Positions 3,547 to 59,452 of a stretch of 64,000 nucleotides of DNA are shown here, one piece after another. The DNA is from Volvox africanus. Taxonomy: Eukaryota > Chlorophyta > Chlorophyceae > Chlamydomonadales > Volvocaceae. The stretch spans positions 2,735,501 through 2,799,500 of the forward strand of contig BSDZ01000016.1 of assembly GCA_030268105.1 (NCBI GenBank), in the 5' to 3' direction. A model generated the notes under the pieces. The model had not been told where the DNA came from and searched no databases. It saw nothing but the letters and a program-made list of their open reading frames with translations. Each line of letters opens with the position of its first letter. The stretch's first letter is position 1. Both the position numbers and the translations under genes were made by a program.

Positions 3547-4012
3547 AATTGGTATCGAGACAGGTTCGTTGCCTAACTGTCTCTCTTTGTCTAATCGGAA
3601 GTAGGCTCTTTCTATGGCGAGTTCCAGCGACGAACCACGAGGACCGCTAGATACTTTTGCCGAAGACCTAGGCCGCGCCGTTTTGGACGCCGCCGCTTCT
3701 GGTTTGTAATTGTTTAATTGCTTTTGCTTAGATTGCTGCACTTGTTGTGTAAGTGTATGCTCTGAGTCGCAGGTAATCTCAGTGCACCGGCATTGCTTGC
3801 CGCGGCGACTGAGACCGGCGTTCGTCCGGACCAGTTGGCGACTCTCATCGCCCAAACTACGGAGATCAGGACTCAGCTGGGCAAGTACTTGCTGAGTTTA
3901 CTGAATCTTCTCAAGAGTACTGTCGATAGGCTCACCGAATTGTTTTATACTCTTGCCTTTGCGATAGAAGTCGGCTTCTATTATGCAAACCTAGGGTATC
4001 GCTTCGTGCTCC
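3547..4012 (+). other. A3 leader with primer binding site
   Basis: The primer binding site is at about 3550-3566 (TGGTATCGAGAC...), three bases after the LTR. The plant initiator-Met site usually reads TGGTATCAGAGC, so the priming tRNA may be a variant or another tRNA. The remainder carries the leader ORF listed separately. Confidence 0.8.
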
Positions 4013-4047: not shown

Positions 4048-5248
4048 CCTAGCTAGCCAACCCGATTTTGTTGTGGCTGCTAGAGCGCCGGATAGAGGTC
4101 TTGAGACTGTTGGCGCGCGAGCCACTCAAGAGCCCCTTTTCCTTCAGACCCCTGCTCACTTAATTGTGCCGCATTCAGCAGTTAACACCAATATGGACAA
4201 CACTGCTGGACCAAGGGTTCTGCCATTACCTCAAGCTTGAGGGCATGATGACATCCCTGAGGTGATGAGATTGTCGATTCCCGTTCCTAGGCTCAATATC
4301 TCGCTGACCGACAAGACACCAGGGCATAGCATAGCCGATGCAACTCGTGCGTACGTGCGTGACGCTAAAAAGTATCTCCAGGCTGTTCATGGTGGCGATA
4401 ATGACGGTATCAGGTGTCTCTTCGTTGGTAACACCCTCGAGGGCTCAGCGAAGGACTGGTATCGCGAATGGACCACCGCCCAGGGCAACTATACTTTTGA
4501 CGAGATGATCGCCGCTTTGCTTGCACGGTTCGCTACTGAGGTTCAAGCACGCGATGTGGAGGCTCGTAAGGTTTTGGCAGCCGGTAGCTACCACATGCGT
4601 CGGGGTGAAAATGTACCTGCGTACCAGTCACGCTTCGAAGCACTTGTGACCCCCATTGCTGATCTCACCGAAACCGAGCGTGTCTTTTGGTTTAAGGGAG
4701 GCCTGACGAAACTTTTGGCTAAATGGTGCGCTACTGACTTGGCTGGGGTGCCGATCAAGTCGTATGATGCCTTGGTCACTTTTGCTAAGGGCACGGAGAT
4801 ACGACTCCTTGCCGGTGAGGAAGGAGTCAAGTCTGCCCCTCGTGCAAATGCCGTGCAAGTGCAGGATCCGCTTGGGGAAGCTGTAGCTCTCGACCAGGAC
4901 CTCGGCGCGACCCGCCCCACGCCTACTGCCGCGACGCGACGCAGCAACGGGCAATGCAAGGCGCGCGGGGGCGCTAGCTCGGGTGTCCGCGGGTCAGGAG
5001 GAGCTGGTCCGAGCTCGGACCCGGCTAAGAGCAGGAAGCGTGGTGGTGCGCCGTCGTCGGCAGCCGCACAGCGCTCTGACCCCAATGCGAAGCGGACTCG
5101 CACGGATGACTCGTTTATGCCAAAATGGAATTGCAATCGTTCCGAGTTTGAACGTCGGAAAGCGGCCAATGTTTGTCTACAGTGCGCGGAGAGCCATCCT
5201 ACGAAGGATTGCCCGTTACTGCCGCCGTTTGTACCTCAGCCGAAATAG
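4013..5248 (+). pseudogene. gag: gag of A3, one nonsense codon
   Basis: Codes for the capsid/nucleocapsid polyprotein that would form the virus-like particle. Same start and end as the intact gag of A12. It contains the helical Retrotrans_gag-like core and a C-terminal zinc knuckle (CLQCAESH..KDC). Codon 76 is TGA (4238-4240) where other copies have CGA in CTCGAG, a C-to-T change at a CpG. Reading could resume only from internal ATGs such as 4265. The same stop is present in A4, so it was inherited or spread by recombination. It ends at the UAG at 5246-5248. Confidence 0.88.
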
Positions 5249-9947: not shown

Positions 9948-11148
9948 CCTAGCTAGCCAACCCGATTTTGTTGTGGCTGCTAGAGCGCCGGATAGAGGTC
10001 TTGAGACTGTTGGCGCGCGAGCCACTCAAGAGCCCCTTTTCCTTCAGACCCCTGCTCACTTAATTGTGCCGCATTCAGCAGTTAACACCAATATGGACAA
10101 CACTGCTGGACCAAGGGTTCTGCCATTACCTCAAGCTTGAGGGCATGATGACATCCCTGAGGTGATGAGATTGTCGATTCCCGTTCCTAGGCTCAATATC
10201 TCGCTGACCGACAAGACACCAGGGCATAGCATAGCCGATGCAACTCGTGCGTACGTGCGTGACGCTAAAAAGTATCTCCAGGCTGTTCATGGTGGCGATA
10301 ATGACGGTATCAGGTGTCTCTTCGTTGGTAACACCCTCGAGGGCTCAGCGAAGGACTGGTATCGCAATTGGACCAACGCCCGGGGCAACTATACTTTTGA
10401 CGAGATGATCGCCGCTTTGCTTGCACGGTTCGCTACTGAGGTTCAAGCACGTGATGTGGAAGCTTGTAAGGTTTTGGCAGCCGGTAGCTACCACATGCGT
10501 CGGGATGAACATGTACCTGCGTACCAGTCACGCTTCGAAGCACTTGTGACTCCCATTGCTGACCTCACTGAATCCGAGCGTGTCTTTTGGTTTAGGCGAG
10601 GCCTGACGAAAATTTTGGCTAAATGGTGCGCTACTGACTTGGCTGGGGTGCCGATCAAGTCGTATGATGCTTTGGTCGCTTTTGCTAAGGGCACGGAGAT
10701 ACGACTCCTTGCCGGTGAGGAAGATATCCAGTCTACCCCTCGTGCAAATGCCGTGCAAGTGCAGGATCCGCTTGGGGAAGCCGTAGCTCTTGACCATGAC
10801 TTTGGAGCGACCCGCCCCACGCCTACTGCCGCGACGCGACGCAGCAACCGGCAACGCCAGGCTCGCGGGGGCGCTAGCTCGGGTGTCCGTGGGTCAGGAG
10901 GAGCAGGTCCGAGCTCGGACCCGGCTAAAAACAGGAAGCGTGGTGGTGCGCCGTCGACGGCAGCCGCACAGCGTTCCGACCCTAATGCGAAGCGGACTCA
11001 CACGGACGACACGTATATGCCAAAATGGAATTGCAATCGTTCTGAATTCGAGCGTCAGAAATTGGCCAACGTTTGTCTACGGTGTGCGGAGAGCCATTCC
11101 ACGAAGGATTGCCCGCTAATGCCGCCGTTTGTACCTCAGCCGAAATAG
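9913..11148 (+). pseudogene. gag: gag of A4, one nonsense codon
   Basis: Full length, with the same TGA as A3 (10138-10140) after LPLPQA. The rest is open: the core with KDWYRNWTNARGNYTFDE, a basic Gly/Ser/Arg-rich stretch and the zinc knuckle CLRCAESHSTKDC. It ends with UAG at 11146-11148. Confidence 0.88.
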
Positions 11149-22791: not shown

Positions 22792-23992
22792 CCTAGCTAG
22801 CCAACCCGATTTTGTTGTGGCTGCTAGAGCACCGGATAGAGGTCTTGAGACTGTTGGCGCGCGAGCCACTCAAGAGCCCCTTTTCCTTCAGACCCCTGCT
22901 CACTTAATTGTGCCGCATTCAGCAGTTAACACCAATATGGACAACACTGCTGGACCAAGGGTTCTGCCATTACCTCAAGCTCGAGGGTATGATGACATCC
23001 CTGAGGTGATGAGATTGTCAATTCCCGTTCCTAGGCTCAATATTTCGCTGACCGACAAGACACCAGGGCATAGCATAGCCGATGCAACTCGTGCGTACGT
23101 GCGTGACGCTAAAAAGTATCTCCAGGCTGTTCATGGTGGCGATAATGACGGTATCAGGTGTCTCTTCGTTGGCAACACCCTCGAGGGCTCAGCGAAGGAC
23201 TGGTATCGCAATTGAACCAACGCCCGGGGCAACTATACTTTTGACGAGATGATCGCCGCTTTGCTCGCACGATTCGCTACTGAGGTTCAAGCACGTGATG
23301 TGGAAGCTCGTAAGGTTTTGGCAGCCGGTAGCTACCACATGCGTCGGGATGAAAATGTACCTGCGTACCAGTCACGCTTCGAAGCACTTGTGACTCCCAT
23401 TGCTGACCTCACTGAATCCGAGCGTGTCTTTTGGTTTAGGCGAGGCCTGACGAAAATTTTGGCTAAATGGTGCGCTACTGACTTGGCTGGGGTGCCGATC
23501 AAGTCGTATGATGCTTTGGTCGCTTTTGCTAAGGGCACGGAGATACGACTCCTTGCCGGTGAGGAAGATATCCAGTCTACCCCTCGTGCAAATGCTGTGC
23601 AAGTGCAGGATCCGCTTGGGGAAGCCGTAGCTCTTGACCATGACTTTGGAGCGACCCGCCCCACGCCTACTGCCGCGACGCGACGCAGCAACCGGCAACG
23701 CCAGGCTCGCGGGGGCGCTAGCTCGGGTGTCCGTGGGTCAGGAGGAGCAGGTCCGAGCTCGGACCCGGCTAAAAACAGGAAGCGTGGTGGTGCGCCGTCG
23801 ACGGCAGCCGCACAGCGTTCCGACCCCAATGCAAAGCGGACTCACACGGACGACACGTATATGCCAAAATGGAATTGCAATCGTTCTGAATTCGAGCGTC
23901 AGAAATTGGCCAACGTTTGTCTACGGTGTGCGGAGAGCCATTCCACGAAGGATTGCCCGCTAATGCCGCCGTTTGTACCTCAGCCGAAATAG
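22757..23992 (+). pseudogene. gag: gag of A6, one nonsense codon
   Basis: The codon at the A3/A4 stop is CGA here, but the Trp codon of WYRNW is TGA (23213-23215). Downstream the frame is open through the core and the zinc knuckle to UAG at 23990-23992. The same TGA occurs in the duplicate A9. Confidence 0.88.
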
Positions 23993-33768: not shown

Positions 33769-34255
33769 AATTGGTATCGAGACAGGTTCGTTGCCTAACT
33801 GTCTCTTTGTGTCAAATCGGAAGTAGGTTCTCTCTATGGCGAGTTCCAGCGACAAACCACGTGGACCGCTAGACACTTTTGCCGAACACCTAGGCCGCGC
33901 CGTATTGGACACCGCTGCTTCCGGTTTGTAATCGTTAAATTGCTTTTGTCTAGATTGCTGCACTTGTTGTGTAAGTGTACGCTCTGAGTCGCAGGTAATC
34001 TCAGCGCTCCGGCATTGCTTGCCGCGACGATTGAGACCGGCTTTCGTCCGGACCAGTTGGCGACTCTTATCGCCCAAACTATGGAGATCAGGACTCAGCT
34101 GGGCAAGTACCTGCTGAATTTGCTGAATCTTCTCAAGAGTACTGTCGGTAGGCTCACCGAACTGTTTTGTACTCTTGCCTTTGCGGTAGAAGTCGTCTTC
34201 TATTACGCAAACCTAGGGTATTGCTTCGTGTTCCATGTCTGCGGAACGCGACGAT
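33769..34255 (+). other. A8 leader, truncated at gag start
   Basis: Primer binding site from 33772. The leader ORF is diverged but unbroken: exon 1 33836-33923, intron 33924-33994 with GT and AG kept, exon 2 from 33995 running into the following LTR. It carries about seven silent changes against A5 (CGA to CGT, GAT to GAC, GTT to GTA and others) and several replacements, but no stop or indel. It ends one codon short of the usual gag region, at an LTR start. Confidence 0.8.
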
Positions 34256-34865
34256 TGTTGTGCTACAGTTCATTTCCCGCCAATGCGTAGGTCGATGCGA
34301 CCCTACAAGGCGAAGTGTTATCTTGATGAACGCATGAATGACTATTGCATATGAATGAACCTGCATGATATAGATGTATTCGCATACATTTATGTATGCA
34401 TTTGGCATGTTATCATTATCCATCACGACATCGCATCATGGCAAATCCACCTAGCATGCATGAAATACCGAATCATTGAAGTGTGCATTATGCTCGTGCT
34501 ATGAAACTATAAGTAATATTATTTAATATAATATTACTTCATTACAGCACACGTTGAGCGTGTTGTGCTACGGTTCGTTTCCCGCCGATGCGTAGGTTGA
34601 TGCGATCCTACAAGGCGAAGTGTTATCTTGATGAACGCATGAATGACTATTGCATATGAATGAACCTGCATGATATAGATGTATTCACATACATTTATAT
34701 ATGCATTTGGCATGTTATCATTATCCATCACGACATCGCATCATGGCAAATCCGCCTAGCATGCATGGAATACCGAATCATTGAAGTGTGCATTATGCTC
34801 GTGCTATGAAACTATAAGTAATATTATTTAATATAATATTACTTCATTACAGCACACGTTGAGAG
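34256..34865 (+). repeat. Two tandem 305-bp partial LTRs
   Basis: 34256-34560 and 34561-34865 each begin exactly at TGTTGTG and stop at the same place in the LTR (CACACGTTGAG), followed directly by the next TGTTGTG; the third start (34866) is a full LTR. The duplicate block has only one partial copy (47854-48158). Confidence 0.92.
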
Positions 34866-35698
34866 TGTTGTGCTACGGTTCGTTTCCCGCCAATGCGTAG
34901 GTCGATGCGATCCTACAAGGCGAAGTGTTATCTTGATGAATGCATGAATGACTATTGCATATGAATGAACCTGCATGATATAGATGTATTCACATACATT
35001 TATATATGCATTTGGCATGTTATCATTATCCATCACGACATCGCATCATGGCAAATCCGCCTAGCATCCATGAAATACCGAATCATTGAAGTGCGCATTA
35101 TGCTCGTGCTATGGAACTATAAGTAATATTATTTGATATAATATTACTTCATTACAGCACACGTTGAGAGCGCCGCACTCGTCACGATGCATGCCTTGCA
35201 ACCAAATATCGTTATTCGGACCCTTGCATCATGCGAATGGCGGAAAGGCTTATACGTTGTTATGCTTGGACTTCGCCTATACGCAGTAGCGTTGTCACAC
35301 TTAGGATCGGCCTCCTAGTGTGAATCGTACGGCATTGCGATGCTGCGAGTATAACAGATGCGAGGACGGCTAAGCTAGACAAGACATTCGACACTGGAGA
35401 ACACTCGTGTGTTCTACATTATTATTGATATACGCTACTCTACTTAGCCCGAGCTAAGCCTAAATTTCGCTATTCACCACCGCGTGATGATTGCTTGCTT
35501 CCGGCGCTGACGGCGATTGCGTCCATTGCACCGCTTCGATCTGTAAGACTGTAAGTTATATCTCTTCTTGTTTGAAGTCTTCCGCTGTCTCTGTTTGCTC
35601 GTGCTTGCCTTGCTGTACTTGCAAGTGCTCGCACATTGGTGTCGCAAGCCTTCAGACGCGCAGATACTGATGAGCAAACACGAAGGAGAGGTACAACA
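34866..35698 (+). repeat. 5' LTR of A9
   Basis: 833 bp, complete, TTACAG subgroup. The second stem reads CCAAATA...TATTCGG, one of the few copies in which that stem is broken. Confidence 0.94.
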
Positions 35699-36164
35699 AA
35701 TTGGTATCGAGACAGGTTCGTTGCCTAACTGTCTCTCTTTGTCTAATCAGAAGTAGGCTCTTTCTATGGGGAGTTCCAGCGACGAACCACGAGGACCGCT
35801 AGATACTTTTGCCGAAGACCTAGGCCGCGCAATTTTGGAAGCCGCCGCTTCCGGTTTGTAATTGTTTAATTGCTTTTGCTTAGATTGCTGCACTTGTTGT
35901 GTAAGTGTACGCTCTGAGTCGCAGGTAATCTCAGTGCACCGGCATTGCTTGCCGCGGCGACTGAGACCGGCTTTCGTCCGGACCATTTGGCGACTCTCAT
36001 CGCCCAAACTACGGAGATCAGGACTCAGCTGGGCAAGTACTTGCTGAGTTTACTGATTCTTCTCAAGAGTACTGTCGGTAGGCTCACCGAATCGCTTTGT
36101 ACTCTTGCCTTTGCGATAGAAGTCGGCTTCTATTACGCAAACCTAGGGTATCGTTTCGTGCTCC
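35699..36164 (+). other. A9 leader with primer binding site
   Basis: Primer binding site from 35702 (TGGTATCGAGACAGG). Contains most of the leader ORF. Confidence 0.8.
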
Positions 36165-36199: not shown

Positions 36200-37400
36200 C
36201 CTAGCTAGCCAACCCGATTTTGTTGTGGCTGCTAGAGCACCGGATAGAGGTCTTGAGACTGTTGGCGCGCGAGCCACTCAAGAGCCCCTTTTCCTTCAGA
36301 CCCCTGCTCACTTAATTGTGCCGCATTCAGCAGTTAACACCAATATGGACAACACTGCTGGACCAAGGGTTCTGCCATTACCTCAAGCTCAAGGGCATGA
36401 TGACATCCCTGAGGTGATGAGATTGTCGATTCCCGCTCCTAGGCTCAATATCTCGCTGACCGACAAGACACCAGGGCATAGCATAGCCGATGCAACTCGT
36501 GCGTACGTGCGTGACGCTAAAAAGTATCTCCAGGCTGTTCATGGTGGCGATAATGACGGTATCAGGTGTCTCTTCGTTGGTAACACCCTCGAGGGCTCAG
36601 CGAAGGACTGGTATCGCAATTGAACCAACGCCCGGGGCAACTATACTTTTGACGAGATGATCGCCGCTTTGCTCGCACGATTCGCTACTGAGGTTCAAGC
36701 ACGTGATGTGGAAGCCTGTAAGGTTTTGGCAGCCGGTAGCTACCACATGCGTCGGGATGAAAATGTACCTGCGTACCAGTCACGCTTCGAAGCACTTGTG
36801 ACTCCCATTGCTGACCTCACTGAATCCGAGCGTGTCTTTTGGTTTAGGCAAGGCCTGACGAAAATTTTGGCTAAATGGTGCGCTACTGACTTGGCTGGGG
36901 TGCCGATCAAGTCGTATGATGCTTTGGTCGCTTTTGCTAAGGGCACGGAGATACGACTCCTTGCCGGTGAGGAAGATATCCAGTCTACCCCTCGTGCAAA
37001 TGCCGTGCAAGTGCAGGATCCGCTTGGGGAAGCCGTAGCTCTTGACCATGACTTTGGAGCGACCCGCCCCACGCCTACTGCCGCGACGCGACGCAGCAAC
37101 CGGCAACGCCAGGCTCGCGGGGGCGCTAGCTCGGGTGTCCGTGGGTCAGGAGGAGCAGGTCCGAGCTCGGACCCGGCTAAAAACAGGAAGCGTGGTGGTG
37201 CGCCGTCGACGGCAGCCGCACAGCGTTCCGACCCCAATGCAAAGCGGACTCACACGGACGACACGTATATGCCAAAATGGAATTGCAATCGTTCTGAATT
37301 CGAGCGTCAGAAATTGGCCAACGTTTGTCTACGGTGTGCGGAGAGCCATTCCACGAAGGATTGCCCGCTAATGCCGCCGTTTGTACCTCAGCCGAAATAG
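36165..37400 (+). pseudogene. gag: gag of A9, one nonsense codon
   Basis: Same Trp-to-TGA stop as A6 (36621-36623), otherwise open to UAG at 37398-37400. A few replacements against A6 (FWFRQG for FWFRRG). Confidence 0.88.
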
Positions 37401-47366: not shown

Positions 47367-47853
47367 AATTGGTATCGAGACAGGTTCGTTGCCTAACTGT
47401 CTCTTTGTGTCAAATCGGAAGTAGGTTCTCTCTATGGCGAGTTCCAGCGACAAACCACGTGGACCGCTAGACACTTTTGCCGAACACCTAGGCCGCGCCG
47501 TATTGGACACCACTGCTTCCGGTTTGTAATCGTTAAATTGCTTTTGTCTAGATTGCTGCACTTGTTGTGTAAGTGTACGCTCTGAGTCGCAGGTAATCTC
47601 AGTGCTCCGGCATTGCTTGCCGCGACGATTGAGACCGGCTTTCGTCCGGACCAGTTGGCGACTCTTATCGCCCAAACTATGGAGATCAGGACTCAGCTGG
47701 GCAAGTACCTGCTGAATTTGCTGAATCTTCTCAAGAGTACTGTCGGTAGGCTCACCGAACTGTTTTGTACTCTTGCCTTTGCGGTAGAAGTCGTCTTCTA
47801 TTACGCAAACCTAGGGTATTGCTTCGTGTTCCATGTCTGCGGAACGCGACGAT
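47367..47853 (+). other. A11 leader, truncated at gag start
   Basis: Duplicate of the A8 leader, including the diverged spliced ORF from ATG 47434; joined to an LTR start at 47854. Confidence 0.8.
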
Positions 47854-48158
47854 TGTTGTGCTACAGTTCATTTCCCGCCAATGCGTAGGTCGATGCGACC
47901 CTACAAGGCGAAGTGTTATCTTGATGAACGCATGAATGACTATTGCATATGAATGAACCTGCATGATATAGATGTATTCGCATACATTTATATATGCATT
48001 TGGCGTGTTATCATTATCCATCACGACATCGCATCATGGAAAATCCGCCTAGCATGCATGGAATACCGAATCATTGAAGTGTGCATTATGCTCGTGCTAT
48101 GAAACTATAAGTAATATTATTTAATATAATATTACTTCATTACAGCACACGTTGAGAG
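47854..48158 (+). repeat. One 305-bp partial LTR
   Basis: Counterpart of 34256-34865 with one unit fewer; starts TGTTGTG and stops at CACACGTTGAGAG before the full LTR. Confidence 0.92.
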
Positions 48159-48991
48159 TGTTGTGCTACGGTTCGTTTCCCGCCAATGCGTAGGTCGATG
48201 CGATCCTACAAGGCGAAGTGTTATCTTGATGAATGCATGAATGACTATTGCATATGAATGAACCTGCATGATATAGATGTATTCACATACATTTATATAT
48301 GCATTTGGCATGTTATCATTATCCATCACGACATCGCATCATGGCAAATCCGCCTAGCATCCATGAAATACCGAATCATTGAAGTGCGCATTATGCTCGT
48401 GCTACAAAACGATAAGTAATATTATCTGATATAATATTACTTCATTACAGCACACGTTGAGAGCGCCGCACTCGTCACGATGCATGCCTTGCAACCAAAT
48501 ATCGTTATTCGGACCCTTGCATCATGCGAATGGCGGAAAGGCTTATACGTTGTTATGCTTGGACTTCGCCTATACGCAGTAGCGTTGTCACACTTAGGAT
48601 CGGCCTCCTAGTGTGAATCGTACGGCATTGTGATGCTGCGAGTATAACAGATGCGAGGACGGCTAAGCTAGACAAGACATTCGACACTGGAGAACACTCG
48701 TGTGTTCTACATTATTATTGATATACGCTACTCTACTTAGCCCGAGCTAAGCCTAAATTTCGCTATTCACCACCGCGTGATGATTGCTTGCTTCCGGCGC
48801 TGACGGCGATTGCGTCCATTGCACCGCTTCGATCTGTAAGACTGTAAGTTATATCTCTTCTTGTTTGAAGTCTTCCGCTGTCTCTGTTTGCTCGTGCTTG
48901 CCTTGCTGTACTTGCAAGTGCTCGCACATTGGTGTCGCAAGCCTTCAGACGCGCAGATACTGATGAGCAAACACGAAGGAGAGGTACAACA
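48159..48991 (+). repeat. 5' LTR of A12
   Basis: 833 bp, complete TGTTGTG...GTACAACA. Confidence 0.95.
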
Positions 48992-49457
48992 AATTGGTAT
49001 CGAGACAGGTTCGTTGCCTAACTGTCTCTCTTTGTCTAATCAGAAGTAGGCTCTTTCTATGGGGAGTTCCAGCGACGAACCACGAGGACCGCTAGATACT
49101 TTTGCCGAAGACCTAGGCCGCGCAATTTTGGAAGCCGCCGCTTCCGGTTTGTAATTGTTTAATTGCTTTTGCTTAGATTGCTGCACTTGTTGTGTAAGTG
49201 TACGCTCTGAGTCGCAGGTAATCTCAGTGCACCGGCATTGCTTGCCGCGGCGACTGAGACCGGCTTTCGTCCGGACCATTTGGCGACTCTCATCGCCCAA
49301 ACTACGGAGATCAGGACTCAGCTGGGCAAGTACTTGCTGAGTTTACTGATTCTTCTCAAGAGTACTGTCGGTAGGCTCACCGAATCGCTTTGTACTCTTG
49401 CCTTTGCGATAGAAGTCGGCTTCTATTACGCAAACCTAGGGTATCGTTTCGTGCTCC
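48992..49457 (+). other. A12 leader with primer binding site
   Basis: Primer binding site from 48995 (TGGTATCGAGACAGG). Contains most of the leader ORF. Confidence 0.8.
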
Positions 49458-49492
49458 ATGTCCGCGGAACACGACGATACGCCGCACACTAG
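49059..49492 (+). CDS. Candidate spliced leader ORF, A12 copy (120 aa), reference
   Basis: Exon 1 (49059-49146) starts M-G-S-S-S-D-E-P-R-G and ends in the first base of a Gly codon. A 71-nt intron (49147-49217, GTTTGT...GTCGCAG, pyrimidine-rich) follows. Exon 2 (49218-49492) continues in frame as NLSAPALLAAATETGFRPDH, a Leu-rich amphipathic stretch (TQLGKYLLSLLILLKSTVGR) and a hydrophobic/aromatic tail, to TAG. Unspliced, exon 1 stops at TAA four bases into the intron. Exon/intron lengths and splice sites are the same in A3, A4, A5, A6 and A9. It overlaps gag (49458) by 35 nt in another frame. No similarity recognised. It could be an accessory protein, a leader peptide regulating gag translation, or chance; no RNA evidence is available. 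Confidence 0.5.
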
Positions 49493-50693
49493 CCTAGCTA
49501 GCCAACCCGATTTTGTTGTGGCTGCTAGAGCACCGGATAGAGGTCTTGAGACTGTTGGCGCGCGAGCCACTCAAGAGCCCCTTTTCCTTCAGACCCCTGC
49601 TCACTTAATTGTGCCGCATTCAGCAGTTAACACCAATATGGACAACACTGCTGGACCAAGGGTTCTGCCATTACCGCAAGCTCGAGGGTATGATGACATC
49701 CCTGAGGTGATGAGATTGTCAATTCCCGTTCCTAGGCTCAATATTTCGCTGACCGACAAGACACCAGGGCATAGCATAGCCGATGCAACTCGTGCGTACG
49801 TGCGTGACGCTAAAAAGTATCTCCAGGCTGTTCATGGTGGCGATAATGACGGTATCAGGTGTCTCTTCGTTGGTAACACCCTCGAGGGCTCAGCGAAGGA
49901 CTGGTATCGCAATTGGACCAACGCCCGGGGCAACTATACTTTTGACGAGATGGTCGCCGCTTTGCTCGCACGATTCACTACTGAGGTTCAAGCACGCGAT
50001 GTGGAAGCTCATAAGGTTTTGGCAGCCGGTAGCTACCACATGCGTCGGGATGAAAATGTACCTGCGTACCAGTCACGCTTCGAAGCACTTGTGACTCCCA
50101 TTGCTGACCTCACTGAATCCGAGCGTGTCTTTTGGTTTAGGCGAGGCCTGACAAAACTTTTGGCTAAATGGTGCGCTACTGACTTGGTTGGAGCGCAGAT
50201 CAAGTCGTATGATGCTTTGGTCGCTTTTGCTAAGGGCACGGAGATACGACTCCTTGCCGGTGAGGAAGATGTCAAGTCTGTCCCTCGTGCAAATGCCGTG
50301 CAAGTGCAGGATCCGCTTGGGGAAGCTGTAGCCCTCGACCAGGAACTCGGAGCGACCCGCCCCACGCCTACTGCCGCGACGCGACGCAGCAACCGGCAAC
50401 GCCAGGCGCGCGGGGGCGCTAGCTCGGGTGTCCGTGGGTCAGGAGGAGCAGGTCCGAGCTCGGACCCGGCTAAAAACAGGAAGCGTGGTGGTGCGCCGTC
50501 GTCGGCAGCCACACAGCGTTCCGACCCCAATGCGAAGCGGACTCGCACGGACGACACGTATATGCCAAAATGGAATTGCAATCGTTCCGAATTCGAGCGT
50601 AGGAAATTGGCCAACGTTTGTCTACGGTGTGCGGAGAGCCATTCCACGAAGGATTGCCCTCTAATGCCGCCGTTTGTACCTCAGCCGAAATAG
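49458..50693 (+). CDS. gag: gag of A12, intact (411 aa), reference
   Basis: Open from ATG (start chosen as the first in-frame ATG shared by all complete copies; weak context CTCCATGT) to UAG 50691-50693. Residues 1-85 are polar and low in structure. About 95-250 form the Retrotrans_gag-like helical core (DAKKYLQAVHGG, SAKDWYRNW, YTFDEMVAALLARF, ERVFWFRRGLTKLLAKW). About 290-370 form a Gly/Ser/Arg-rich RNA-binding-like linker. The zinc knuckle is C388-C391-H395-C400, spacing CX2CX3HX4C. It would assemble cytoplasmic particles. The pol frame continues directly after the UAG. Confidence 0.92.
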   Translation: MSAEHDDTPHTSLASQPDFVVAARAPDRGLETVGARATQEPLFLQTPAHLIVPHSAVNTNMDNTAGPRVLPLPQARGYDDIPEVMRLSIPVPRLNISLTDKTPGHSIADATRAYVRDAKKYLQAVHGGDNDGIRCLFVGNTLEGSAKDWYRNWTNARGNYTFDEMVAALLARFTTEVQARDVEAHKVLAAGSYHMRRDENVPAYQSRFEALVTPIADLTESERVFWFRRGLTKLLAKWCATDLVGAQIKSYDALVAFAKGTEIRLLAGEEDVKSVPRANAVQVQDPLGEAVALDQELGATRPTPTAATRRSNRQRQARGGASSGVRGSGGAGPSSDPAKNRKRGGAPSSAATQRSDPNAKRTRTDDTYMPKWNCNRSEFERRKLANVCLRCAESHSTKDCPLMPPFVPQPK

Positions 50694-55529: not shown

Positions 55530-55909
55530 AAGTGCGTTACAGTGCGTTACAGTGCGTATGGTAACGCACTGTACGCAAGATATACGCAACCTGTTTGCGT
55601 AAAGTTAACGCGTGCGTTAGGTTTGCGATCGGAATGCGTACAGCTCGCGTTAGAACATACGCAAGCCCACGATTTTCGAGTATCACAAAACGTAATAAAA
55701 ATTACAGGGAACTTTCATACTCATTATAAATATTGTTTTCATTTAAAAGAACTTGAAAACGACGCACTATAACAGACGTTCTGTCAAGTTTTCTATATGT
55801 TGCGTTAGGCTCGCGTTAGGCCAACGCAAACTCAAACGCACAAAACGCAGCCTTACGCACACATACGCGCCCTAACGCGAGCCTAACGCACGAATCTGTT
55901 GTTATAGTG
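55530..55909. repeat. D1 right subterminal repeats and terminal inverted repeat
   Basis: GCGTTA/TAACGC motifs crowd 55530-55660 and 55800-55900, including a near-perfect tandem of AGTGCGTTAC at about 55530-55556. The terminal repeat is 55883-55909, ending GTTGTTATAGTG. The dense motif blocks are broken by about 140 bp of A+T-rich sequence (55665-55800). Confidence 0.82.
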
Positions 55910-58900
55910 GTAGGTTACGGACCCGCCCTAAGTGCACTGACGTTGTCTGCTGGGCAGTCGCTCGTAGATAACCGTGTCCCTGTGGTTCAGATCGGTTTGA
56001 ATGGCCGTACTCTGAAGGCACTTGTTGACACCGGTGCCAGCGACGACTTCATCTCTGTCGCAGAGGTGAATGTGCTGGGGTTGTCCCCAGAGTCGTCTGA
56101 TTGTCCACAGGTTACCCTTGCTGACGGGGGTAAGCATCCCATCGTGGGCAGGATTACCCTTAGCCTATCGATAGGCCCTTTGCGTGTTGTGACCCGGCCG
56201 TACGTGCTGCAGGGCTTAGCAGAGACTGCACCGTACATAATGGGGTCGTCGACATTACGACAGTACCGTGCGCGCATCGACATGGAGACCGCAACCCTGC
56301 ATATGTGCAAGGGTACTCTGTCGATTAAGGTACCTTTCCTGTCGTTCGAACATGTCACACCAAAGGAGGGCGAAACTGAGGCGGTGCCTATGGTTAATTT
56401 CGCTGTGACCGCAATGGCCGCGCGAATCGAACCAGAGCTAGTCGGGCGTAAGGAGGCCGTCCGTTTGTTACGGAAGGGTGCCCACGGACTGCTTTTAAGG
56501 CCACGGGTGAGCTGTTGTGTCACCACTGCGCAGATTTCTGTGGATCCTGAGGTTGAGGCCCTACTGTCGCAGTATGAGGACGTCTTTAAAGATATCCCTG
56601 GCCTACCACCTATGCGTCCTGTTGATCACACAATCCCTCTCGTGCCTGGAGCGCAGCCTACGGCCCGGCCAATGTACAGGTTGAGTCCATTGGAGCTGGA
56701 CGAGGTGAAGCGCCAGGTGACGGATTTGCTCGCGAAGGGTATGATACGCCCCAGCACATCCCCGTATTCTGCACCGATTTTGTTTGTCGGTAAGAAGGAT
56801 GGGACCTTGCGCATGTGCATTGATTACCGGGGGTTAAATGCGAATACGGTGAAAAATCGCTACCCTTTGCCACGCGTTGACGACCTGTTGGATAAGCTGA
56901 AGGGCTCGGCTTATTTTTCCTCAATTGACTTACAACAGGGCTACAATCAGATTCGCATCGCTGCCTCTGATATCCCGAAAACCGCTTTTCGGACGCCCTT
57001 CGGTCACTTTGAGTATACGGTCCTATCGTTTGGTTTGACTAATGCCCCTGCGACGTTTCAGGCGGTTATGGACCGAATGTTTAGGCCGTTTATCGACAGG
57101 TTCGTTGTTTACTACCTGGATGACATCTTGGTATATTCTAAAACGCGTGAGGAGCACTTGGAGCATCTTCGGCTCGTGCTCGACGTTATGAGGCGGGAGC
57201 AATTGTTTGCTGAATGCGCCAAATGCTTTTGGGCGCAGCCTCAGGTGGAATATTTGGGCCACATTGTGTCAGCAACCGGTGTTAAGATGGACCCGCGGAA
57301 GGTCGCCGTGGTTCGCGATTGGCCCGCGCCTCAGAACCTCACGGAGCTGCGTAAGTTCCTTGGCTTGACCAATTATTTCCGAAAGTTCATTGAAAAATAT
57401 TCCATCATTGCGGCCCCGCTTACTAACTTAACTCGCGAAGGCGTTTTCGTTTCGCTCGAGTCGTGGAGGTCGCAATGCCAGCGGGCATTCGAAGAGCTCA
57501 AACGAATCGTTGCCGAAGATGTCACCCTTGCATTCCCTGATTAATCGTTGCCATTTCGTGTTGAGGTAGTGTCTGATGCCTCAATATTTGGAAGCGGCAC
57601 TGTATTGTTACAGGAAGGGCGACCGATAGCCTTCACGAGTAAGAAGTTTTCTGGTGCGGAGATTCGCTACACCACCGGGGAACAGGAGCTTCTGGCCGTG
57701 CTGCATGCTTTAAAGGAATGGCGCTGTTACCTCGAGGGACGCCCGTTTACTTTAAAGACTGACCACAAGCCCCTAACGTTTTTGCAAAGCGTTCCGACGT
57801 TGAACCGCCGTCAAGCTAGGTGGATGGAATACCTAGCTAGGTTCGACTGCACCTGGGAGTACATTTCTGGTAAATTGAATATTGCCGATGCTCTCAGTCG
57901 ACATCCGTCGCTACACGCTGCAATTTTGGCAGCGCCCGTTGTGCGGCCGCGTAAAGAGGAGGTGCCGATCGCGACAGACCTCGCGGAGCGGTTGAAGGTT
58001 GCCTACAACGCAGACGCCTGGTTCGCGGACCCGGCTAATGTAGAAAACCTTCGCAAGCAGAATGGCCTTTGGCTACGGACGGAGGGTGCAGCTACGCAAA
58101 TCCTCGTTCCGAACGACGACGCGCTACGCTACGATATCCTTGCGCGGTTCCATGAGGACCCGTTAGCAGGACACCCTGGTAGCAAGCGATTGATCGACTT
58201 GGTGCAACGTTCCTTTTGGTGGCCTCGTTTGACTAAGGATGCGGCGAACTTCGTACAGACATGCAGTCTGTGCCAGCGCAATAAGGCTTTGTCCGGTAAG
58301 GGCCATGGGTTGTTGCAACCGTTGCCTGTCCCGGATGCGCCTTGGGAAAGTGTTTCCATGGACTTCGTAGTCGCGCTGCCCAAAACTGAGGGGGGATACG
58401 ATGCGGTGTTCGTAATGGTCGATCGTCTGACTAAGATGGTTCACCTAGCACCATGCACATCATCCTGCACGGCTGAGCAAACCGCACGTTTGTTTTTTGA
58501 TAATGTGGTTCGGTTACACGGGGTTCCCAAAAATGTGATCTTGGACCGCGGTGGACAGTTCACGTCTAAGTTTTGGGAAGCGCTCTGCAAGCTAGTTGGC
58601 ATGCGTGTCAACCTGAGCACAGCGTATCACCCGCAGACTGATGGTCAAACCGAACGCACAAACCGCACGTTGGGTGATATGTTGCGCAATTATGCTGGTC
58701 GCACACCACTTGTTTGGGATACATATTTGACTGCGGCAGAATTCGCGCTTAACAATGCTGTTAACCGCTCTACAGGCAAAAGTCCGTTCTTTCTCAACTA
58801 CGGGTTTCATCCCGCGCTACCCGTGTGGCGTGAGTTGGAAGTGAACGTGCCTGCTGCTAAACTTTTTGCCAAGTCTTTTATGTCCCGAATCACAGACGCG

Positions 58901-59452
58901 AAGTCGTGTTTGGACGCGGTGCAGCAACGAACGACGGAATACTACAACAAATCCAAGCAGGATGTGACGTTTTCGGAAGGGCAACTCGTGTTGCTAAGTA
59001 CCAAGAACTTGCGTTTCTTGGCCGATGGATCCCGAAAACTTTTACCCCGCTGGATTGGTCCGTATCCTGTCATGCGCATGGTTGGGAATGTGGCTGTGGA
59101 GCTTGCATTGCCCGCTGATATGACCATTCATCCCACGTTTCACGTATCACTTGTTCGTCCGTATCGTGGTACGGAACCCGTCCCTGAGCCTGCTAACGCC
59201 CCTGCAGCGATAGAACCAGTTCCCGAGACCTGGATCGCTGGTAAAGAGAAGTTTTACGATGTGGAGCGGGTGTTAGATTATCGCGTGCGTCGTGTGGGCC
59301 GACACCGACGTAAGCGGACAGTACACGAGTACTTGGTTAAGTGGACAGGGTATACCGACGAGCACAACTCATGGGAACCGGCACGCAACTTCTCGCAGGA
59401 CATGAAGCCTCTGCTCGAAGAAGCCCGCAAACATGCCACGCAAGCCCAATGA

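What the first reader, a model, noticed from the sequence alone, without database searches (positions are those of the whole stretch)
49059..49492. Conserved spliced 120-aa ORF in the leader of family A
Between primer binding site and gag, every complete copy keeps the same exon 1 (88 nt), a 71-nt GT-AG intron and exon 2 (275 nt), joining in frame and overlapping the gag ATG by 35 nt in another frame (also at 3614, 9514, 13150, 22358, 35766). The diverged A8/A11 copies carry both silent and replacement changes but no stop or indel, while gag in several neighbours is already broken. Chromoviruses normally have no gene before gag. It might be an accessory protein, an N-terminal Gag extension reached by frameshift, or a translation control peptide.
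Basis: partly seen in the sequence, partly recalled or inferred. Interest (0 to 1): 0.75.

Follow-up and report, generated by a model that had tools for sequence, protein, structure and literature searches.

The report
Alternatively spliced Gag in Volvox retrotransposon
The supposed small gene in front of gag in this Volvox jumping element is most likely the front part of an alternatively spliced Gag gene: splicing swaps Gag's front end and can cut out its capsid core, and the genome holds precisely spliced copies as a record of it.

Summary
The sequence observation is right: exon 1 (88 nt), a 71-nt GT-AG intron and a 275-nt frame lie where stated. The interpretation needs changing. Exon 1 plus the first 153 nt of exon 2 are under protein-level selection in two families (dN/dS 0.25 and 0.13). 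The last 122 nt of the '120-aa ORF' show no such signal (0.66 and 0.76). That tail starts a second intron, 49371-49626, which joins the 80-residue module in frame to Gag. A third GT-AG intron, 49707-50309, removes the capsid core in frame. The own genome (Volvox africanus) holds loci with each intron excised at the exact junction: I1 7, I2 7 plus 7 by the acceptor 3 nt upstream, I3 23; the reversed control patterns gave 0 hits. The seven I2-less copies placed on a tree are not one clade. Deposited V. africanus proteins show the same joins. The alternative N-terminus at ATG 49458, inside intron 2, is also under selection, so the element appears to encode two Gag N-termini, each with or without capsid. 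Closest known: MLV SD'/SDARE-P50 and Cer1 CERV. New variant of a known kind; the accessory protein's function is inference.

The parts
48159..48991 (+). 5' LTR (TGTTGT...ACAACA)
   Evidence: Left boundary at 48158/48159 shared by many copies; termini read
48994..49009 (+). putative primer binding site TTGGTATCGAGACAGG
   Evidence: position after the LTR, read; tRNA not identified
49059..49146 (+). exon 1 (start of the N-terminal module, ATG)
   Evidence: codon-position bias p=5e-5 (family A) and p=0.001 (P5 family)
49147..49217 (+). intron 1, 71 nt, 44% T
   Evidence: precisely absent at 7 loci and in the nine P5-family copies L049-L057
49218..49370 (+). exon 2a (rest of the N-terminal module)
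   Evidence: codon-position bias p=0.016 and 2e-9; dN/dS of E1+E2a 0.25 and 0.13
49371..49626 (+). intron 2, 256 nt (donor G|GTAGGC, tandem acceptor TTCAG|CAG|TT)
   Evidence: precisely absent at 7 + 7 loci; joined out in deposited proteins P0001, P0006, P0007, for P0001 at a locus that holds it in DNA
49371..49492 (+).
49458..49626 (+). alternative (short-Gag) start codon and N-terminus, read when intron 2 is retained
   Evidence: codon bias p=0.0017 (49458-49624) and 8e-6; dN/dS 0.35 and 0.22
49627..49706 (+). exon 3a, linker kept in the isoforms described
49707..50309 (+). intron 3 / capsid core: coding when retained, 603-nt in-frame GT-AG intron when removed
   Evidence: Ty3_capsid and Retrotrans_gag under cut-off in the window gag, Retrotrans_gag above it in P0007; precisely absent at 23 loci
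50310..50690 (+). exon 4: basic region and CX2CX3HX4C zinc knuckle (nucleocapsid)
50691..50693 (+). gag UAG stop; in other window copies pol continues in the same frame behind it

Best explanation
The 5' part of gag in this Volvox africanus chromovirus is alternatively spliced. Shown by sequence: three GT-AG introns (I1 71 nt, I2 256 nt, I3 603 nt). Removing I1 and I2 fuses an 80-residue, predicted helical N-terminal module (E1+E2a) to Gag in place of the 56-residue N-terminus that starts at ATG 49458 inside I2. Removing I3 as well deletes the capsid core in frame and leaves a protein of about 234 aa: N-module + linker + basic zinc-knuckle nucleocapsid. Some spliced RNAs were reverse transcribed and integrated, leaving intron-less elements. 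Inferred: unspliced RNA is the genome and the messenger of short Gag(-Pol); I1/I2-spliced RNA makes long Gag(-Pol); triply spliced RNA makes an accessory RNA-binding protein that acts on the unspliced RNA (nuclear export, packaging or a splicing switch), as Cer1 CERV does for export. The confidence given is for the splicing architecture; I put the accessory function at about 0.3.
For: Exact-junction genomic copies, reversed control patterns 0 hits each: I1 7, I2 7, I2 with the acceptor 3 nt upstream 7, I3 23 loci. The 7 distinct loci (8 locus records) aligned carry LTR sequence in front (from 48300-48303, where the query began); C23 lacks all three introns. On a 43-row family-A tree the I2 state changes 7 times for 7 I2-less rows, and one clade of them is rejected, p-AU 0.00018. 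Deposited P0001 matches locus L027, which has I1 and I2 in its DNA, at 30/30, 50/50 and 20/20 residues; the V. africanus genome paper says gene prediction was assisted by transcriptome data and describes HISAT/StringTie/TransDecoder (passage and section seen). P0007 (28 cluster members) is the long Gag. P0011 (21 members), P0008 and P0010 are triply spliced; the locus tags of P0008, P0009 and P0010 (Vafri_12727, Vafri_7019, Vafri_9260) also name 214-aa proteins (P0022, P0020, P0032), of which I read P0020: short-Gag N-terminus. dN/dS N-module 0.25/0.13, short-Gag N-terminus 0.35/0.22, tail 0.66/0.76. Splice sites, near-identical array copies counted: donor 1 GT 70 of 71, acceptor 1 71 of 71, donor 2 GT 68 of 70, acceptor 2 CAGCAG 66 of 66, donor 3 73 of 73, acceptor 3 CAG 41 of 41.
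Against: No RNA reads were seen; RNA support is only through deposited gene models. Apart from P0001 the source loci were not identified, and I2- or I3-joined models may come from loci that lack the intron in DNA. Junction patterns for the P5 family found no I2-less or I3-less copy (0 hits). Two window copies (at 3614 and 9514) have donor 2 changed to AT. Donor 3 lies in a conserved E-V codon pair, so its conservation is not independent evidence. Recombination between co-packaged RNAs could lower the number of separate I2 losses; the I1-less family-A copies need only 2 changes, so most are one lineage. In the P5 family L063 and L066 have small deletions in exon 2a. No homologue outside V. africanus was listed, no Pfam domain reached cut-off in the N-module, no fold match: function has no support from homology.
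Confidence: 0.85

Rival explanations
1. A separate 120-aa accessory protein is made from I1-spliced, I2-retained RNA; only its first 80 residues matter, so the tail drifts.
For: E1+E2a constraint; an I1-less lineage with the frame contiguous; an I2-retained 115-aa ORF deposited for a related family (P0003).
Against: Cross-family similarity ends at donor 2 (alignment read by eye); exact I2 junctions at 14 loci; deposited proteins join the module to Gag.
Confidence: 0.15
2. I1 and I2 splicing is functional, but I3 removal is cryptic splicing noise and the capsid-less proteins are by-products.
For: TE transcripts are often aberrantly spliced (general knowledge); the capsid core is under clear constraint as coding (dN/dS 0.28 and 0.10); I3-less DNA copies could generate the gene models.
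Against: I3 is a multiple of 3 in both families (603 nt; 609 nt in L065); acceptor CAG in 41 of 41 family-A reads and in 17 of 17 P5 matches to a pattern that allowed CAG or CAA; capsid-less proteins are deposited for three families (P0011, P0008, P0005).
Confidence: 0.3
3. The upstream ATG and frame act as a translation-control uORF, not through their protein.
For: In unspliced RNA the exon-1 frame stops inside I1 after about 31 codons (read).
Against: Amino-acid level selection over 80 codons in two families and 43-52% identity to other families' proteins.
Confidence: 0.04
4. Intron-less copies are chance deletions or gene conversion, not products of splicing.
For: One copy, L083, does carry an unrelated deletion that is not GT-AG.
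Against: Exact GT-AG junctions at three introns plus the alternative acceptor; I2-less copies scattered on the tree.
Confidence: 0.02

Closest known systems
MLV SD' RNA / SDARE and protein P50 (PMC10496198; abstract and passages seen)
   Same: Alternative splicing with a donor inside gag gives an in-frame protein that keeps part of Gag and loses much of capsid; the spliced RNA is packaged, reverse transcribed and integrated.
   Different: MLV joins gag to the end of pol (integrase); here gag is joined to gag, with upstream exons supplying an alternative N-terminus. No sequence relation was found.
Cer1 CERV, C. elegans (PMC10309623; abstract and passages seen)
   Same: An LTR retrotransposon of the Ty3/gypsy family makes, by multi-exon splicing, a protein sharing peptides with Gag.
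   Different: CERV shares N-terminal Gag peptides and has its own C-terminal half; here the nucleocapsid end of Gag is kept and the N-module is shared with long Gag. RNA-export function is shown for CERV, only inferred here.
BARE1 and copia spliced gag RNAs (PMC3735527; passages seen); Arabidopsis EVADE (review PMC12786077; passages seen)
   Same: Splicing partitions retrotransposon RNA between genome and gag messenger.
   Different: There splicing favours Gag without Pol; here it changes the Gag N-terminus and removes capsid. [quoted passage not shown]
Ogre elements (mentioned in passages of PMC12786077 and PMC3735527; the original paper is not held)
   Same: Plant LTR retrotransposon with a functional spliced intron; an extra upstream ORF is recalled, not read.
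   Different: The upstream coding exons here join Gag rather than standing alone.

Membership tests
Ty3/gypsy chromovirus | PR, RT, RNase H, integrase and C-terminal chromodomain | tested here: met
   Pfam matches above cut-off for gag-asp_proteas, RVT_1, RT_RNaseH, Integrase_H2C2, rve and Chromo in two adjoining window ORFs, 55820-59449
Ty3/gypsy chromovirus | uninterrupted gag directly behind the leader (usual form, recalled) | tested here: not met
   three introns in the leader/gag part
Independent accessory gene before gag | whole ORF under its own coding constraint | tested here: not met
   tail 49371-49492 dN/dS 0.66 and 0.76 with bootstrap ranges including 1; frameshifts and stops
SDARE-type spliced retroelement | integrated DNA copies of a spliced genomic RNA | tested here: met
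SDARE-type spliced retroelement | gag donor joined to an acceptor in pol | tested here: not met
   acceptor 3 lies in gag
CERV-type export regulator | spliced product sharing peptides with Gag | tested here: met
   P0011, P0008
CERV-type export regulator | needed for export of unspliced RNA | not testable with these tools
   needs experiment
Ogre/Tat | intron between protease and RT domains | not tested
   feature recalled; not examined

The most novel reading that the evidence does not exclude
A green-algal LTR retrotransposon has its own Rev/CERV-like switch: the triply spliced 234-aa protein (N-module + nucleocapsid) binds the unspliced RNA and controls export, packaging or splicing, while two alternative Gag N-termini divide particle assembly from genome handling; packaged spliced RNAs seed satellite elements that make only one isoform.
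Probability: 0.3. Interest if true: 0.8.

Novelty: new variant of a known kind. Interest (0 to 1): 0.63.

Why it matters
How one RNA serves as genome and messenger is an open question for LTR retrotransposons. Here the genome itself records which spliced RNAs were packaged and copied, with several insertions per junction, in an alga whose genome paper reports deposited RNA-seq. It also shows that a spliced 'ORF' before gag in raw sequence can be alternative Gag exons.

Full report
What was checked. The finding describes an exon-intron-exon frame between the primer binding site and gag of 'family A'. The frame is there as stated: 88 + 71 + 275 nt, translating to 120 aa; five other full copies in the window align to it without gaps. 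The element is a Ty3/gypsy chromovirus by its Pfam domains. The own genome has 140,993,249 bases in 126 contigs; six of its contig lengths equal the contig lengths given for deposited Volvox africanus VaNZ11 proteins. The Thai V. africanus assembly is 141.0 Mbp (passage of PMC10291315).

Selection splits the 120-aa ORF in two. On 26 family-A rows, parsimony changes by codon position are 19/7/35 in exon 1 (p=5e-5), 12/16/29 in the first 153 nt of exon 2 (p=0.016) and 26/17/27 in the remaining 122 nt (p=0.26). In 22 copies of the related P5 family (named here after protein P0005; some nearly identical) the same pieces give 14/15/35 (p=0.001), 36/14/70 (p=2e-9) and 17/13/19 (p=0.54). dN/dS is 0.25 and 0.13 for the first 80 codons, and 0.66 (codon bootstrap 0.41-1.18) and 0.76 (0.48-1.32) for the tail. 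Frame-breaking changes: exon 1 has a 1-nt deletion in L047 and a lost ATG in L026; exon 2a has one stop in L019; the tail has -1 at 49388 (L012, L014), +5 at 49405 (L015, L020_3) and stops at 49424, 49445 and 49475. In the P5 family, L063 and L066 have small deletions in exon 2a.

A second intron explains the break. Deposited V. africanus proteins join residue 80 not to the tail but to Gag...LLKSTV|VNTNMDN.... In the window this is donor G|GTAGGC at 49371 and acceptor TTCAGCAG|TT ending at 49626, in frame. Between families similarity stops at this donor and the acceptor is kept (alignment read by eye). A pattern spanning the joined exons finds 7 genomic loci with the intron cleanly gone, and a pattern for the acceptor 3 nt upstream finds 7 others; reversed control patterns find none. 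The first intron is likewise gone at 7 loci and in the nine P5 copies L049-L057. One of the 7, L083, also has an unrelated deletion.

A third intron. Locus C23:1366956 lacks I1, I2 and also 49707-50309, again GT-AG and in frame, which holds the capsid core. A junction pattern finds 23 loci without this intron; three of them also lack I2 (C23, C100, C113). The 7 distinct spliced loci aligned have LTR sequence in front, so they look like reverse transcripts of spliced element RNA. On a tree of 43 family-A rows built without I1 and I2, the I2 state changes 7 times for 7 I2-less rows, I1 twice for 6 I1-less rows and I3 three times for 3 I3-less rows; holding the I2-less rows as one clade is rejected (p-AU 0.00018). 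I had seen a FastTree tree before that test, and recombination between co-packaged RNAs could reduce the number of events.

Products. Deposited proteins include the long Gag, E1+E2a+capsid (P0007, 28 cluster members), and proteins of 229-235 aa with all three introns joined out (P0011, 21 members; P0012, P0013; and P0008 and P0010, 231 aa, about 45% identical to P0011). Locus tags Vafri_7019, Vafri_12727 and Vafri_9260 each name both a 231-aa and a 214-aa protein; of the 214-aa proteins I read P0016, P0020 and P0029, which begin with a short-Gag-type N-terminus. P0001 is tied to a locus whose DNA holds I1 and I2 (L027); for P0002, P0005, P0006, P0007 and P0011 I did not identify the source locus. 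The authors of the Thai genome report transcriptome-assisted gene prediction and describe HISAT, StringTie and TransDecoder; I saw no reads, and did not read the paper behind the Vafri proteins.

Both N-termini matter. The ATG at 49458 and the 56 codons from it on lie inside intron 2, yet show coding signal in the gag frame: 17/20/40, p=0.0017, in family A, and 26/17/54, p=8e-6, in P5; dN/dS 0.35 and 0.22. The ATG is present in all 22 P5 copies. So intron 2 appears exonic in one isoform and intronic in the other. Intron 3 behaves the same way.

How it probably works. Shown: coding constraint, splice junctions preserved in DNA, deposited isoforms. Inferred: unspliced RNA as genome and short Gag(-Pol) messenger; doubly spliced RNA for long Gag(-Pol); triply spliced RNA for an N-module + nucleocapsid protein with basic clusters (RKRGG, AKRTRTDD) and a CX2CX3HX4C knuckle, fitting an RNA-binding, possibly nuclear regulator. 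The closest precedents are MLV SD'/SDARE with P50 and Cer1 CERV (abstracts and passages seen). No homologue outside V. africanus was listed at E <= 1 (limited sensitivity), Pfam gives nothing above cut-off for the module, and the fold search is uninformative.

Verdict. Observation confirmed, interpretation replaced: most likely not a free-standing gene but the alternative 5' exons of an alternatively spliced gag, with genomic copies of the spliced RNAs as the main evidence.

Noticed in passing
window 5246-5248, 11146-11148, 23990-23992, 37398-37400: gag ends in an in-frame UAG GGG CTT and a pro-pol frame is open directly behind it in the same frame in these four copies: probable stop-codon readthrough, as the MLV paper abstract PMC5778647 (search listing) describes for MLV. 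In the P5 family gag ends UAG GAA; pol frame not checked there.
   Followed up: partly
window 48963-49008, protein P0015: Deposited P0015 begins MSKHEGEVQQIGIETG and then continues with exon 2a: its first residues match a frame from ATG 48963 in the LTR across the primer binding site to an ACAG|GT donor. This suggests an alternative first exon replacing exon 1.
   Followed up: partly
G000:C16:2923588-2979858: Copies spaced by 1716 bases in several runs, each holding leader and gag start cut at about window position 49805: a satellite built from a truncated element.
   Followed up: no
G000:C25:1192547-1235968: P5-family copies repeated every 10,812 bases: a tandem array of a whole-element-sized unit.
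   Followed up: no
window 47853-48463 and 34253-35170: The first about 305 bases of the LTR are repeated in tandem in front of the LTRs of the copies at 35766 and 49059.
   Followed up: no
window copies at 3614 and 9514: Both carry donor 2 changed from GT to AT (CGATAGG), so they should be unable to splice intron 2 at the normal donor.
   Followed up: no
L083 (G000:C19:857591): An intron-1-less copy with a further deletion from 49270 to 50322 that is not GT-AG.
   Followed up: partly
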